Source of the DNA: Pseudomonadota bacterium
GTDB lineage: Bacteria; Pseudomonadota; Gammaproteobacteria; Burkholderiales; Gallionellaceae
DNA: 64,000 bases
Assembly (NCBI GenBank): GCA_021800795.1
Contig: JAJYYO010000011.1
Coordinates: forward strand, 1-64,000
Reading direction: 5' to 3'
Shown: positions 4,590-11,215 of the stretch, piece by piece
How the letters are laid out: every line of letters starts with the position of its first letter
Position numbering within the stretch: position 1 is the stretch's first letter
The notes under the pieces: model-generated
The model's input: the letters and a program-made list of their open reading frames with translations, nothing else
Told to the model about the DNA's origin: nothing
The model's database searches: none
Translations under genes and position numbers: made by a program

Positions 4590-5149
4590 TCAATCGACAG
4601 GCGACGAGGCTGCAAGCGAGCTCCCGGCATCGCAAGCGATCCAGCAAAGGCAGGCGCCGCCATTCGCGCTTTATCCATCCTGTCCATGCATCAACAGTTA
4701 ACGATGACATAGCTATTTTGCGTTGCCTTCGCGAAAGCCTCTTCCCAATACTCGGGACTGCCCTGCGGGCTGGTGCTCGGGCGATGCCCTCGTTTCTCGT
4801 TTTACTCGAAACCGCCCTGCGGGCGTCCTGCATCGCTTTTCGATTGATCCGGCTCCTGGTTGAACCCATGGGGTTTCGTCCATACTCCTTGCGCAATAAA
4901 AACTGTCCACAGGGGCGGATTTTTTCCACCATCAGGTTGAAACACCGGCTTCGAGTTGTAATCGAGTCCGGTGCACAGGCAGCTTGCAGATGTAATCCGG
5001 GCTACCCCAATCCGGGCAGATTCAGGCTGATTGAGTCAGCGCTTCCCTGAATGAAACTTTTGTCATAATCGTTCAATGGCTTCCATATCGGTTTAGTATT
5101 TGGCAACGGTTCCATCCAGACGGCTGGGGCTGCCGAGGAAGGAGGTCAC
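4590..5149. other. 560-bp intergenic stretch, no convincing gene
   Basis: No ORF here has a ribosome site together with recognisable protein character. Short GC-rich palindromes of the type GCCCTGCGGGC occur twice (near 4760 and 4815). The last part, before the transaldolase remnant, is less GC-rich and contains TTGTCA near 5060 and AGGAAGGAGGT at 5138-5148, a very strong ribosome site. The stretch may include decayed sequence. Confidence 0.4.
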
Positions 5150-6229
5150 ATGAATCCATTGCTTCAAGTTGCACAACAAGGTCAGCGCATATGGCTGCAC
5201 AACCTTTCCCGAGCGCTGCTGCGCGAGGGGAGGCTGGGCAGGCTGATCGAGGAAGGCGCTGTGAGCGGAGTGACTTCCAATCCCGTCGTTTTTCATCGGG
5301 CGGTTTCCGGCAGCCTTCACTATCAAAAGGAGCTGGCACGGCTCAGGGAAAGCGGCCTGAAGCCGGAGGCGCGCTACGAGTCCCTGGCCATCGCGGATGT
5401 CCGGGAAGCCTGCGACGCGCTGTCCCCGATATTCGAAGAAAGCCATGGGGACGACGGTTATGTCAGCCTGGACGTTTCTCCATTTCTGGCTCGCGATGTC
5501 GAAGGCGCCGTGGCGGCCGGGCAGCGTCTGAATGACACCGTAAACCGTCGCAACCTGCTGATCAGAGTGCCTGCCACACGGGAGGGTTTTGTCGCAGCCG
5601 AGGAGCTTGTCGCGATGGGCATCAATGTCAATGTGACGCTGATGTTTTCCCTGTGCCATACGGAGAGTGCGGCGGAAAGTTACATGCGAGGTGCCAGGCG
5701 ATGGGTGGCGGGTGGCGGTGATCCGGGTCGCCTCAAGTCTGTGGCGAGCTTTTTTCTGAGCCGCATCGATACTGCCGTGGACAGGATACTCGAACGGACA
5801 GGCATGGAGGAAATCATCGCCATGCGGGGGCTGAGCGCCATCGCATTGGCCAAGCTCGCCTATTGACGCTACCGGGAAATTTTTCACGGGAGGGCGTTCG
5901 CGGATCTGGCCGCTCTCGGGGTGCGCCCGCAGAATCTGTTGTGGGCCAGCACCGGCACCAAAAATCCATCCTACAGCGACGTGCACTATATGGAACCCCT
6001 GATCGGCCCGGAAACCGTCAGCACGCTGCCGGATGCCACACTTGCAGCTTTCAGGGATCATGGCAAGGTGGATGCCACTCTTGAGAGGGATCAGGATGAT
6101 GCCGAAGGCTGGATAGTCGCTCTGGGCCGCCTGGGAGTGGATATGAGCGAACTCGGAGAAGAGCTGCAAGCTGCGGGTCTGAAATCTTTCGAGCTTGCAT
6201 TCGGCAAACTGTTGAGGCTCACAAACTGA
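5150..6229 (+). pseudogene. tal: Transaldolase (Tal, long type) with in-frame TGA and lost active site
   Basis: The reading frame 5150-6229 aligns along its whole length with the roughly 360-residue transaldolase type (TIGR00876-like): VTSNP near residue 41, NVNVTLMFS near 155, SVASFFLSRIDT near 190 and LLWASTGTKNPSYSD after the break. It is interrupted by an in-frame TGA at 5864-5866, between LAKLAY and RYREIF, where relatives have one ordinary residue. The three catalytic residues are also changed: Asp to His17 (IWLHNLSR), Glu to Asp108 (VSLDVSP) and the Schiff-base Lys to Arg139 (LLIRVPAT). It lies 19 bases before glgP in a sugar cluster and keeps a strong ribosome site. Most likely it is a decaying gene. 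Read-through or a moonlighting N-terminal fragment cannot be excluded, and neither can a sequencing error for the stop alone. Confidence 0.85.
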
Positions 6230-6248: not shown

Positions 6249-8726
6249 ATGAACAAAAAAATCAATACCGCTGCTTTCAATCATGAAAAGCTTGGGCGTG
6301 ATGTCGGCAGCATCACGCATTCCCTGGCAAACAGATTGACCTATACCATCGGCAAGGATCCGCTGACTGCGACGGACCGCGACTGGTTTCATGCCGTCGC
6401 TTATGCGGTAAGGGATCGCCTTGCGGAGTCCTGGATGGAAACCATGCGCAGCTATTACCAGGAAGACGCGAAGCGGATTTATTATTTTTCCATGGAGTTT
6501 CTCGTCGGTCGCATGCTGGTAAACAGCCTCAGCAATGTCGGCCTTTATGAACAATGCCGGGAAGCGCTGTCCGAACTGGGGCTGGATCTCGATGAACTGC
6601 GCGAAATCGAGCCCGATGCAGGACTGGGCAACGGCGGGCTGGGAAGGCTGGCCGCCTGTTTTCTCGATTCCATGGCGACGCTCGGTTTGCCCGGATACGG
6701 TTGCGGAATACGTTACGAATACGGCATGTTCAATCAGGGCATCGAAAAAGGGCAGCAGGTCGAGCACCCTGACAACTGGTTGAGATACGGCAATCCCTGG
6801 GAGTTTCCCCGGCCGGAAGTGCTCTATCCGGTGAAGTTTTTCGGCCATGTGTTGGAGTATGTCGATGAGCAGGGCAACGATCACCACCAATGGATGGATG
6901 CGGAGGAAGTCATGGCGATGGCATACGATACCCCCATTCCGGGTTATGCCAATGATGTGGTGAACAATATGAGGCTCTGGGCGGCCAAGTCTACGCGCGA
7001 TCTCAAACTCCAATATTTCAACGAAGGCAATTACATCAAAGCGGTCGAGGAAAAGAACGACTCCGAGAATCTTTCGAAAGTGCTTTATCCCAATGACACC
7101 ACCCTGATGGGCAGGGAATTGCGTCTCAAACAGCAGTTTTTTTTCGTGAGCGCTTCCCTGCAGGATATTCTCCATCGCTTCAGTAAATTCCACGAATCGT
7201 TCGACGACCTTCCCGGCAAGGTTGCCATCCAGCTCAATGATACCCATCCCTCCATTGCCATACCCGAGCTGATGCACCTGCTGATGGACAAGTATCATCT
7301 GATGTGGGAAAAGGCATGGGATATCACCAGCAAAACTTTTTCATATACCAATCACACACTCATGCCAGAAGCGCTCGAAACATGGCCGGTGCCTCTGATG
7401 GAGCGGGTGCTGCCCCGTCATGTGCAAATCATTATGGAAATCAACCGGCGCTTCCTGAAGGATGTGATGCACAGCTATCCCGGGGACAGGGATGTGGTTC
7501 AGCGCATGTCCATCATCGGGGAGGGCGGCGAGAAGTACATACGCATGGCCCATCTTGCCATCGTCGGCAGCCACAGGGTCAACGGGGTGTCGCACATCCA
7601 CACTGAATTGATGAAAAGTACGATTTTTGCCGATTTCGACCGTTTTTTCCCCGGAAGAATCATCAATCTGACCAACGGAATTACACCCAGACTTTGGCTC
7701 AAGCAGGCCAATCCCCTTCTGTCCGAGCTGATTACATCGCGCATAGGAGAAGGCTGGCCGGCCGACCTGGATCAGCTGGAAAAATTGACTCCGCTTGCGG
7801 AGGATGCCGATTTCCGCAGCAGATTCCGCGCAATCAAACATGCGAACAAGGTCAGGCTGGCCGGGCTCATCAGGGAGCGCATGGGGATTGAAGTCGATCC
7901 GGATTCTCTGTTCGATGTCCAGATCAAGCGGATTCATGAATACAAGCGGCAATTGCTCAATGTGCTGCACATCGTCACCCGCTATAACCGAATCCGCAAT
8001 AACCCTCAAATGGAGTTCGTGCCGCGCACCATCATTTTCGGCGGAAAGGCTGCTCCGGGTTATGCCATGGCCAAGCTGGTCATCAGGCTGATCCACGACG
8101 TGGCGGATATCATAAACAACGATCCTGCGGTGAACAGTCTGCTCAAGGTGGTTTTCATTCCCAATTACGACGTCTCCACTGCAATGGACATCATTCCCGC
8201 AGCCGATCTTTCCGAACAGATCTCGACCGCCGGAACGGAAGCGTCCGGTACAGGCAACATGAAGCTGTCCATGAACGGGGCGCTTACCATCGGAACGCTG
8301 GATGGCGCCAACGTTGAAATCCGGGAAGCGGTCGGGGAAGACAATATCTTCATCTTCGGTCTCGATGCGGCAGAGGTGGCCCAGTGCCACCTCAAGGGGT
8401 ATCGTTCCATGGATTATTACGAAGCCAATATGGAGTTGAAGACGACGCTGGACATGATAGGTTCCGGTTTTTTTTCCCCGGATGAACCCGCTCGTTTCGG
8501 CGCAGTCGTGGAAAATCTGACCAGCGGGAATGATCCCTACCTCGTGCTCGCGGACTATGTCTCCTATGTCGATACCCAGGAAAGGGTCGATGATCTTTAC
8601 CGAGACGTCGACGAATGGTCGCGCAAGGCCATTCTCAATGTCTCCAGGATGGGAAGCTTCTCAAGCGATCGCACCATCAGGCAGTATGCGGCGGAAATCT
8701 GGGGAGTAAAACCGGTAGCGAGGTAG
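6249..8726 (+). CDS. glgP: Glycogen/starch phosphorylase
   Basis: An 825-residue cytoplasmic enzyme that releases glucose-1-phosphate from glycogen using phosphate. The length is normal for the family. Visible signatures are YFSMEFLVGRML near the N-terminus, GLGNGGLGRLAACF, QLNDTHPSIAIPELM, the loop IKRIHEYKRQLLN, and the pyridoxal-phosphate motif EASGTGNMKLSMNG with the cofactor lysine at residue 672. It sits between the transaldolase remnant and gnd-zwf. The cluster therefore joins glycogen breakdown to the oxidative pentose phosphate pathway. Confidence 0.96.
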   Translation: MNKKINTAAFNHEKLGRDVGSITHSLANRLTYTIGKDPLTATDRDWFHAVAYAVRDRLAESWMETMRSYYQEDAKRIYYFSMEFLVGRMLVNSLSNVGLYEQCREALSELGLDLDELREIEPDAGLGNGGLGRLAACFLDSMATLGLPGYGCGIRYEYGMFNQGIEKGQQVEHPDNWLRYGNPWEFPRPEVLYPVKFFGHVLEYVDEQGNDHHQWMDAEEVMAMAYDTPIPGYANDVVNNMRLWAAKSTRDLKLQYFNEGNYIKAVEEKNDSENLSKVLYPNDTTLMGRELRLKQQFFFVSASLQDILHRFSKFHESFDDLPGKVAIQLNDTHPSIAIPELMHLLMDKYHLMWEKAWDITSKTFSYTNHTLMPEALETWPVPLMERVLPRHVQIIMEINRRFLKDVMHSYPGDRDVVQRMSIIGEGGEKYIRMAHLAIVGSHRVNGVSHIHTELMKSTIFADFDRFFPGRIINLTNGITPRLWLKQANPLLSELITSRIGEGWPADLDQLEKLTPLAEDADFRSRFRAIKHANKVRLAGLIRERMGIEVDPDSLFDVQIKRIHEYKRQLLNVLHIVTRYNRIRNNPQMEFVPRTIIFGGKAAPGYAMAKLVIRLIHDVADIINNDPAVNSLLKVVFIPNYDVSTAMDIIPAADLSEQISTAGTEASGTGNMKLSMNGALTIGTLDGANVEIREAVGEDNIFIFGLDAAEVAQCHLKGYRSMDYYEANMELKTTLDMIGSGFFSPDEPARFGAVVENLTSGNDPYLVLADYVSYVDTQERVDDLYRDVDEWSRKAILNVSRMGSFSSDRTIRQYAAEIWGVKPVAR

Positions 8727-8799: not shown

Positions 8800-9723
8800 A
8801 TGATGCGCATGGCGATGATCGGGCTCGGCAAAATGGGCGGCAACATGGCAAGACGGTTGCGACGGGGTGGAGTTGAGGTTGTGGGCTACGACAGGTCAGG
8901 GGACGTCGTGGAAAAGCTGGTTTCTGAGTGCGGCATGATAGGCGCGGCTTCGGTGGTCGATGCAATCGCAGAACTTGCCTCCCCGAGGATCGTCTGGATC
9001 ATGCTGCCCAGCGGGGAACCGACGGAAATCCAGATCAGGGAGCTGGCGACGCTGTTGTCCGGCGGCGACATCGTCATCGACGGCGGCAACTCGAATTACC
9101 ACGACAGCCGGCGGCGGGGCGCATGGCTACGGGAGCGAGGCATCGGCTTCATGGATGCGGGCACTTCAGGCGGCGTGTGGGGGCTGGAAAACGGCTACTG
9201 CCTGATGGTCGGCGCAGAGCCGGAGGTCGCAGCGACTGTCGAGCCTGTGCTCAAGGCGCTTGCGCCGGCGCCCGACCGCGGATGGGCGCATGTCGGACCG
9301 GTGGGTTCGGGGCATTTCACGAAAATGGTTCACAACGGCATCGAATACGGCATGATGCAGGCCTTGTCCGAAGGGCTCGCACTCATCGAAGGGAAGCGCG
9401 AGTTTGCCCTCGACCTTGCCCAGATCACCGAACTCTGGCGCCATAGTTCGGTGGTGAGGAGCTGGTTATTGGATCTTACCGCTGAGGCGCTACACTCGGA
9501 TCAGAAGCTGGAGGGAATCGCTCCCTATGTCGCGGATTCAGGGGAAGGGCGATGGACTGCCATCGAGGCGATCGATCAGGGGGTGGCCGCCCCCGTGCTG
9601 AGTATGGCGCTTCAGATGCGCTTTCTGAGCCAGGACGACCAGGGTTACGGGTTCAAGCTGCTTTCCCTGATGAGAAATGCCTTCGGCGGACACGCCGTGA
9701 AAGCGCAGCATGAAAATAACTGA
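8800..9723 (+). CDS. gnd: 6-phosphogluconate dehydrogenase (decarboxylating), short type
   Basis: A 307-residue enzyme that oxidises and decarboxylates 6-phosphogluconate to ribulose-5-phosphate. An N-terminal Rossmann motif ([15 protein letters not shown]) is followed by [11 protein letters not shown], the substrate loop [14 protein letters not shown] and the catalytic lysine in [12 protein letters not shown] (Lys175). The roughly 300-residue length marks it as the short, often NAD-preferring GndA/YqeC-like form rather than the 470-residue form. AGGAGAAAT precedes the start. Its 3' end overlaps zwf by 14 bases, so the two are translationally coupled. Confidence 0.93.
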
Positions 9724-11215
9724 TCCCTGCACGCTGGTCATCTTCGGCGCCGGAGGGAATCTCTCCCGGCGCAAATTGATTCCTGCGTTGTTTCAGCTCG
9801 AAACTTCGGCACGCCTGCCCGACAATATGGTGATTCTGGCTTCAAGTCTGGATCAGTGGAGCCGTGAACAATGGCTGGAAGAAGTGGCGAAAATGCTGCT
9901 CGCAAAATACCCGAACGGGATAGACGAGAAGGCTTTCGAGCGATTCAGGAGCAGGTTGTACTACCACCAGAGCAGCCTGGACGATCCGGAGGCCTACCAG
10001 AGATTGCAGGCAATGCTGGAAGAGACGCCCGAGTTTCCCTCGAATATCGTGTTTTACATGGCGGTCAGGCCTGCCGAGTTCATGGCGCTCATCGAGAAAC
10101 TGACTTCGGTCAACCTGCTCAGGGAAACCAGGGGATGGCGGCGGGTGGTGATCGAGAAGCCTTTCGGCTATGACCTGTTGAGCGCGCAGATCCTTCAGAA
10201 CGGGCTTTATAAGCATCTGAACGAACCCCAGATCTACCGGATAGACCATTATCTCGGGAAGGGGACGGTGCAGAACGTGATGCTTTTCCGCTTTGCCAAT
10301 CTGCTGCTCGAACCGCTCTGGAATCGCCATTACATCGACCACGTTCAGATCACGCACTCGGAAACCCTGGGTATCGAAGGCAGGGCGGATTATTACGAAG
10401 GTTCGGGCGCGTTGCGCGACATGATTCAGAGCCATCTGCTGCAATTGCTCACGATCGTCGCAATGGAGCCGCCGGTCTCGATCAGCGCCGAACACTTGCG
10501 CGACGAAAAAGTAAAGGTGCTGAAAGCCATTCGGCCGATCCCGCAAAATGCGGTGCATGCCCACGCTTTCAGGGGCCAGTATGCAAGCGGCATGGTGGAC
10601 GGCAAAGCTGTGCCCGGATATCTGGATGAAGCCGGGGTCGCCCCCGGCAGTTCGACCGAAACTTATGCGGCGCTCAAGCTGTTCGTCGACAACTGGCGCT
10701 GGATGGGCGTGCCGTTCTATCTCAGGACGGGCAAGCGCATGGCGGAAAACAGTTCCGCCATCTCGATACGCTTTAAAACACCTCCCCAGGATCTGTTGCG
10801 CCATACGCGCCGCGAGCCGCCGAAGCCGAACTGGATATTGCTCGGCATCCAGCCGAACGACTGCCTCAAGATGGAAATGCAGGTCAAGGTGCCGGGCCTC
10901 GATCTGCATACCCGCACCGTCAGCCTCGATGCGACTTATCACAAGGGCGGCGATCAGGACTACGACGCTTACGAAGGACTGTTGCTCGATGTGATGAACG
11001 GCGATCATTCCCTTTTTCTGCGTATCGACGAAGTGGAATGCGCGTGGAGCACCGTGGACCCGATCCTGAAGGTATGGTCGATGGAACGCGATTTCATCAA
11101 TACCTATCCGGCAGGCTCATGGGGCCCGCGCGGCACCTACCGGCTGTTCGACCGGGACGACCAGTTCTGGCGTCACTCGCTCGATACCGACGGCGGCGAT
11201 TTGCACGCATTTTAA
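9710..11215 (+). CDS. zwf: Glucose-6-phosphate 1-dehydrogenase
   Basis: A 501-residue enzyme that oxidises glucose-6-phosphate to 6-phosphogluconolactone and produces NADPH. The cofactor loop reads [17 protein letters not shown], where most relatives have GASGDL. The substrate motif [13 protein letters not shown] is intact, as are [26 protein letters not shown] and [10 protein letters not shown]. The start lies inside the end of gnd (14-base overlap). The DUF2934 gene follows 34 bases downstream, and no lactonase gene is present here. Confidence 0.94.

What the first reader, a model, noticed from the sequence alone, without database searches (positions are those of the whole stretch)
5198..5566. 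All three catalytic residues of the transaldolase are replaced
Compared with the Tal family, Asp becomes His17 (codon 5198-5200), Glu becomes Asp108 (5471-5473) and the Schiff-base Lys becomes Arg139 (AGA at 5564-5566), while the rest of the fold is well kept. A random pseudogene would not lose exactly these first. This suggests either long-standing relaxation, or a former change of function before the stop arose. The cell would need another transaldolase or a sedoheptulose bisphosphatase route.
Basis: partly seen in the sequence, partly recalled or inferred. Interest (0 to 1): 0.65.

Follow-up and report, generated by a model that had tools for sequence, protein, structure and literature searches.

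The report
Transaldolase gene missing its catalytic residues
A bacterial sugar-metabolism gene has lost all three residues that do the chemistry while the rest of the protein stayed nearly as conserved as in intact relatives, which suggests it stopped being this enzyme and did something else before a stop codon broke it.

Summary
Window 5150-6229 (+) is a long-type transaldolase gene with one in-frame TGA (5864-5866). His17, Asp108 and Arg139 stand where 151 of 151 homologues that reach the sites (149 distinct) have Asp, Glu and Lys. Among 33 columns invariant in 147 distinct homologues the window differs at four: these three and Ile47Val (chance 7e-4). Random decay hitting all three should also have changed several of 62 other conserved sites; one changed. 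There is no frameshift, codon bias is normal, and the read-through product models as a complete transaldolase. The window branch has raised dN/dS (0.23 against 0.06), poorly determined because silent sites are saturated; neighbouring glgP is not raised. The genome holds an intact TalA/B-type transaldolase, so no bypass is needed. Best reading: loss of transaldolase chemistry on a constrained scaffold (a pseudoenzyme stage), then a young stop, which a strain-level change or assembly error could also explain. Selenocysteine read-through was tested and is unlikely. One genome only; no function is shown.

The parts
5150..6229 (+). long-type ('mycobacterial', TIGR00876/PRK03343) transaldolase gene, 359 codons plus stop, interrupted by one in-frame TGA
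   Evidence: read-through scores 431.1 bits for PRK03343 (cut-off 367) and 286.9 for TIGR00876 (cut-off 233.75)
5140..5146 (+). AGGAGGT, strong Shine-Dalgarno sequence three bases before the ATG
   Evidence: sequence; motif meaning recalled
5198..5200 (+). codon 17, CAC His, in place of the catalytic Asp
5471..5473 (+). codon 108, GAC Asp, in place of the catalytic Glu
5564..5566 (+). codon 139, AGA Arg, in place of the Schiff-base Lys
5864..5866 (+). in-frame TGA, codon 239, at a position that varies in homologues (Q, R, K, A, G, H, L, T in the rows)
5867..6226 (+). remaining 120 codons in the same frame, open and conserved
   Evidence: (130.7 bits to PRK03343)
6249..8726 (+). glycogen phosphorylase gene (glgP), 19 bases after the transaldolase frame ends; used as the control for dN/dS
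8800..9723 (+). 6-phosphogluconate dehydrogenase gene (gnd)
9710..11215 (+). glucose-6-phosphate dehydrogenase gene (zwf)

Best explanation
The gene encoded a transaldolase-family protein that lost transaldolase chemistry at the three catalytic positions while selection went on keeping the fold and the rest of the pocket, that is, a pseudoenzyme stage. A single TGA then arose late, or exists only in this strain or assembly. The most likely role of the pseudoenzyme stage is non-catalytic: binding of a sugar phosphate, as a sensor or as a partner of the enzymes of the same cluster (glgP, gnd, zwf), while the intact TalA/B-type enzyme does the catalysis. Shown: the three replacements, the kept remainder, the intact second transaldolase gene, the single stop. 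Inferred: the order of events, the loss of activity (Arg is not expected to form the Schiff base; established mechanism), and the role.
For: All three catalytic residues replaced while 151 of 151 homologues reaching the sites keep D/E/K (70 of 70, where fragment L021 does not reach them; 81 of 81; two duplicates). Window differs at 4 of 33 invariant columns, three of them catalytic, P = 7.3e-4; at 95% conservation 4 of 65, P = 9e-5, a total within the range of intact homologues (mean 0.9, up to 7). Null simulation: in 4000 trials at each of six divergences, none gave all three hits with at most 1 of 62 other sites changed and at most one stop (approximate). No frameshift over 359 codons; codon-position GC and codon usage like the neighbours on both sides of the stop. 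Residues aligned with the substrate pocket, N44, S106, N161, T163, S200, F202, R205, are all in the invariant set (pocket role recalled from E. coli TalB). Raised but sub-neutral omega on the window branch, 0.23 against 0.063, p 0.0013; omega 1 is worse by 2dlnL 7.4; control glgP 0.077 against 0.075. End branch 0.43, below two intact lineages.
Against: One genome only; no relative with the same replacements was found, so maintenance over time is not shown directly. There is a stop codon, and most genes with one are simply dying. Against the 33 nearest homologues the window differs at 7 of 80 invariant columns (A222I, L225M and N291S besides the four), more than any intact row (at most 5), and at 10 of 100 columns at 95% (at most 6), so some loosening elsewhere is possible; without the three catalytic ones the counts are 4 and 7. 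At 90% in the wide set it differs at 7 of 79, equal to the highest intact row. Silent sites are saturated (third-position difference 0.50-0.69 at shared codons of A, G, P, T, V), so omega is uncertain (between about 0.1 and 0.7), and one intact lineage (L056) also tested as raised, 0.14, p 0.011. The replacements are mild. No partner or ligand is known.
Confidence: 0.55

Rival explanations
1. Simple decay: once the TalA/B-type enzyme was present the long-type gene became redundant, and random mutations happened to hit the three catalytic residues and then gave a stop.
For: In-frame TGA; redundancy with an intact TalA/B-type gene; raised omega on the branch; more changes at columns invariant in the 33 nearest homologues than any intact row; only 43 of 158 genomes of the family, the window's own included, hold a long-type gene at E 1e-10, so it is dispensable.
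Against: Only 1 of 30 other invariant and 1 of 62 other 95%-conserved columns changed in the wide set; joint outcome not reached in 4000 simulated trials at any of six divergences; no indel; the part after the stop is not more diverged (omega 0.11 after, 0.33 before, difference not tested formally). Another homologue with one in-frame stop, L123, keeps D/E/K.
Confidence: 0.3
2. The stop is not there in the living population: a sequencing or assembly error, or a change private to this strain, so that the gene is in truth an intact, conserved transaldolase pseudoenzyme. (Overlaps with the best explanation.)
For: Frame and codon bias run on for 120 codons after the TGA; the position is variable in homologues and tolerates many residues; strong Shine-Dalgarno before the start.
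Against: Genome of high estimated completeness (99.99%); no reads were available; a single substitution error in an assembled contig is uncommon (general knowledge).
Confidence: 0.1
3. The TGA is decoded, as selenocysteine or by stop read-through, and the full-length protein is made today.
For: The genome uses UGA for selenocysteine: tRNA-Sec 76.4 bits (cut-off 47) with anticodon UCA, a SelB-like frame beside it (recognised from memory), and a formate dehydrogenase alpha gene with one in-frame TGA. A hairpin can form at the transaldolase TGA.
Against: The hairpin is little better than shuffles (z -1.3, 19 of 200 as good); its loop is A/U only, whereas the formate dehydrogenase UGA is followed by a hairpin with a GU-bearing stretch at its tip, further out. 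No row has Cys at this position; no Rfam match above chance level.
Confidence: 0.03
4. A new catalytic activity: His17, Asp108 and Arg139 form a new active site in the same barrel. (Overlaps with the best explanation in the order of events.)
For: Swap at all three positions with the pocket kept and a raised, sub-neutral omega.
Confidence: 0.05

Closest known systems
Transaldolase of Neisseria gonorrhoeae (3clm, 7oey; long type) and Corynebacterium glutamicum (3r5e)
   Same: Same fold over the whole length: Z 55.2, rmsd 0.9, 350 residues, 46% identity for 7oey; Z 51.5, rmsd 1.3, 37% for 3r5e.
   Different: The Neisseria sequence has D/E/K at the aligned positions (Corynebacterium recalled); the window has H/D/R and a stop. 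The Lys8-Cys38 redox bridge of the Neisseria enzyme (passages of PMC8964421) is not possible at the aligned window positions (Ala8, Ser39).
Bacillus methanolicus MGA3 transaldolase (PMC7092467; passages, sections 15 and 18)
   Same: A natural transaldolase gene truncated by point mutations, whose strain still shows activity and may make a full-length protein; the authors discuss recoding of a stop.
   Different: Subfamily IV; variants restoring full length were active there, while here the catalytic residues themselves are replaced.
Transaldolase candidate F2 of Faecalicatena (PMC11659671, passages)
   Same: A transaldolase homologue with a changed catalytic residue (Glu to Gln).
   Different: One of three changed there, Lys kept; here all three.
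PDX1.2, the non-catalytic paralogue of plant PLP synthase (PMC6829848, search listing and start of abstract)
   Same: Works like: a pseudoenzyme that regulates the pathway of its active relatives.
   Different: Different family; present across eudicots, whereas this is one genome. Its fold, lost lysine and partners are recalled.

Membership tests
long-type transaldolase (TIGR00876 / PRK03343) | full-length profile match above the curated cut-off | tested here: met
   read-through 431.1 bits (cut-off 367) and 286.9 (233.75); the two pieces apart fall below the cut-offs
long-type transaldolase (TIGR00876 / PRK03343) | Asp/Glu/Lys catalytic residues | tested here: not met
   H/D/R in the window; D/E/K in 151 of 151 homologues that reach the sites (149 distinct)
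long-type transaldolase (TIGR00876 / PRK03343) | fold of the family | tested here: met
   model pLDDT 94.8; 7oey Z 55.2, rmsd 0.9. The model is of the read-through protein and built on homologues, so it says little about the three residues
active transaldolase | transfer of dihydroxyacetone between sugar phosphates | not testable with these tools
   needs an assay; loss expected from the missing Schiff-base Lys
pseudoenzyme | catalytic motif lost on a scaffold that is otherwise conserved | tested here: met
   4 of 33 invariant columns changed, three catalytic; 4 of 49 with 69 homologues, but 7 of 80 against the 33 nearest
pseudoenzyme | kept by selection over time as an expressed protein | tested here: inconclusive
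   omega below 1 but poorly determined; in-frame stop; no second species found
pseudogene | reading frame broken | tested here: met
   one in-frame TGA
pseudogene | unselective decay (indels, several stops, loss at conserved sites generally) | tested here: not met
   no indel, one stop; normal codon bias; conserved sites kept in the wide set, with some excess in the near set
selenoprotein | UGA followed by a selenocysteine insertion hairpin with a G/U-bearing apical loop (rule recalled) | tested here: not met
   the machinery itself is in the genome

The most novel reading that the evidence does not exclude
A transaldolase pseudoenzyme that is still made as a full-length protein (the TGA being read through, or absent from the natural population) and acts as a sugar-phosphate-sensing or scaffold subunit for the glycogen phosphorylase and oxidative pentose phosphate enzymes encoded beside it.
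Probability: 0.12. Interest if true: 0.65.

Novelty: new variant of a known kind. Interest (0 to 1): 0.4.

Why it matters
Pseudoenzymes are known in many families. In the held library, 'inactive transaldolase' is in no paper, and 'transaldolase' together with 'pseudoenzyme' is in one, a review of engineered glycan-binding proteins seen only in the listing; I found no description of a transaldolase pseudoenzyme, though most subscription papers are not held. If the reading is right, this catches a core metabolic enzyme losing its chemistry cleanly while its scaffold stays under selection, and it warns annotators that a profile match far above cut-off (431 bits once the stop is read through) can name an enzyme that cannot do the reaction. 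It also shows that a stop codon can hide an earlier change of function.

Tried and rejected
General decay was tested by leave-one-out conservation, codon composition, a codon model and a mutation simulation. In the simulation the 62 other conserved sites were stood in for by 62 codons drawn at random from the gene, and the three hits occurred in at most 1.8% of trials at any divergence, so it is approximate and its resolution is about 1 in 4000. The codon model is my own script (GY94, F3x4, one or two omegas); with 14 and 17 taxa it gave 0.24 and 0.23 for the window branch. Of 13 branches tested as foreground, four besides the window had p under 0.1 (L056 raised; L069, L063 and L048 lowered, the last two with the branch length at its bound), and of six in the glgP control one (L161, lowered, p 0.011), so the test is sensitive to base composition and saturation. 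The placing of the window row in the tree is not firmly supported (92/89).

The plasmid hits (71 records) were not read for these residues.

Rows dropped before counts: L022 and L002 (TalA/B type) throughout; L021 (fragment, does not reach the sites); L020 and L021; L021, two duplicates (L075, L076) and two rows of 300 residues or fewer. 'Invariant' ignores gaps and asks that 90% of rows have a letter.

Shared cluster: a transaldolase of this type lies beside glgP in none of the 29 other glgP loci fetched (1500 bases of flank, some contigs shorter). Horizontal acquisition was not pursued further. A promoter scan found no sigma-70-like site and decides nothing. The structure listing showed only transaldolases and fructose-6-phosphate aldolases in its 50 rows, as far as their titles tell. 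Literature searches gave context only.

Full report
What is there. Window 5150-6229 on the + strand is one reading frame of 359 codons broken by a single TGA at codon 239. It is a transaldolase of the long ('mycobacterial') type: the read-through product scores 431 bits for PRK03343 (cut-off 367) and 287 for TIGR00876 (cut-off 233.75), and both pieces match Pfam TAL_FSA on their own. A strong Shine-Dalgarno sequence precedes the ATG.

The three residues. Codons 17, 108 and 139 read His, Asp and Arg. They align with the catalytic Asp, Glu and Schiff-base Lys of the family (Glu and Lys also; the D-E-K triad as catalytic is stated for transaldolases in PMC7092467, passages seen). In homologues: 70 of 70 that reach the sites (71 examined; the fragment L021 does not reach them) and 81 of 81 have D, E and K. 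Two of these are duplicates, which leaves 149 distinct.

Is it more than chance. With 69 homologues, 49 columns are invariant and the window differs at four: 17, 47, 108, 139. With 147 distinct homologues, 33 columns are invariant and the same four differ; the chance that four random changes include the three catalytic ones is 7.3e-4; at 95% conservation the figures are 4 of 65 and 9e-5, and at 90% 7 of 79 and 4e-4. Intact homologues left out one at a time differ at 0.07 invariant columns on average, at most 2; at 95% at 0.9, at most 7; at 90% at 1.7, at most 7. Against the 33 nearest homologues alone the window differs at 7 of 80 invariant columns (intact rows 0 to 5) and at 10 of 100 at 95% (0 to 6); all three catalytic ones are again among them (chance 4e-4 and 7e-4 by the same formula, worked by hand), but the four to seven others show that the rest of the protein is not perfectly kept. 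A mutation simulation from a D/E/K start, 4000 trials at each of six divergences from 0.01 to 0.12 per site, never gave all three hits with at most 1 of 62 other sites changed and at most one stop (approximate, see Tried and rejected).

State of the rest. There is no frameshift. GC by codon position and codon usage are normal before and after the stop (GC3 0.68 and 0.65; neighbours 0.52 to 0.75). The tree of the 33 nearest homologues gives the window an end branch of 0.43, shorter than two intact lineages (L069 0.59, L065 0.44) and longer than the other 31; its exact place is not firmly supported. Residues aligned with the substrate pocket (N44, S106, N161, T163, S200, F202, R205) are in the invariant set and kept (that they line the pocket is recalled from E. 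coli TalB). The model of the read-through protein has pLDDT 94.8 and matches N. gonorrhoeae transaldolase 7oey at Z 55.2, rmsd 0.9, 350 residues.

Selection. A branch model gives omega 0.23 on the window branch against 0.063 elsewhere (2dlnL 10.4, p 0.0013), 0.21 without the three codons, 0.33 before the stop and 0.11 after it (the last not different from the background, p 0.46). Fixing omega at 1 is worse by 2dlnL 7.4, and the profile is flat between 0.15 and 0.5. The control gene glgP has 0.077 on the same genome's branch against 0.075. Against over-reading: silent sites are saturated, and one intact lineage, L056, also tests as raised (0.14, p 0.011). If the rise came from a neutral phase, many more of the widely conserved sites should have changed than the one seen; this step is inference. 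The rise therefore sits mostly at more variable sites, which fits an altered constraint better than decay.

The cell's other transaldolase. The same genome holds a 319-aa TalA/B-type gene at G000:C50:21157-22113 above the curated cut-off for talAB (485.5 bits, cut-off 396.2), with the D, E and K motifs visible in its sequence (D by recalled comparison with E. coli TalB, E and K also). So the organism does not need a sedoheptulose bisphosphatase route for this reason. TalA/B-type genes are in 12 of 41 genomes examined at E 1e-40, the window's own included, and long-type genes, most of them of more distant subtypes, in 43 of 158 of the family at E 1e-10, likewise counting the window's own.

The organism. 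The window genome shares its family code with G117; the G117 protein (L023) is identical to that of L075, titled Gallionellaceae bacterium. By that inference the window is from Gallionellaceae.

The stop. The genome has a real selenocysteine system: tRNA-Sec (76.4 bits, cut-off 47; anticodon UCA), a SelB-like frame beside it (recognised from memory), and a formate dehydrogenase alpha gene with one in-frame TGA. I therefore tested selenocysteine at the transaldolase TGA. A hairpin can form there, but 19 of 200 shuffles fold as well, its loop is A/U only, and it does not resemble the hairpin after the formate dehydrogenase UGA. No row has Cys there. Selenocysteine is unlikely. A strain-level change or assembly error could not be tested.

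Conclusion. The evidence favours loss of transaldolase chemistry while the scaffold was still under selection, followed by a young stop (0.55), over simple decay (0.30). A role as sugar-phosphate-binding partner of the neighbouring enzymes is the most likely function of that stage, by inference only. The main weakness is that all of this rests on one genome.

Noticed in passing
L190:1501-1596 (+) and L190:1627-3090 (-); L198: The window's genome has a selenocysteine system: tRNA-Sec, a SelB-like frame and a formate dehydrogenase alpha gene with an in-frame TGA, all on contig C13.
   Followed up: partly
L123:11-1063: A long-type transaldolase in a Bacillota MAG also shows one in-frame stop but keeps D/E/K; a useful contrast to the window gene.
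   Followed up: no
G004:C45:20841-23273 (-): A glgP homologue of the same genus has one in-frame TGA and lies next to a TalA/B-type transaldolase gene (G004:C45:19872-20819).
   Followed up: no
window 6249-8726: The window's glgP is only about 70% identical to its nearest relatives in the family and has a long end branch (0.46), like the transaldolase gene; a second glgP lies at G000:C28:134375-136768. The cluster may have come from elsewhere.
   Followed up: partly
window 5140-5146: A very strong ribosome-binding site is kept before the broken gene.
   Followed up: no
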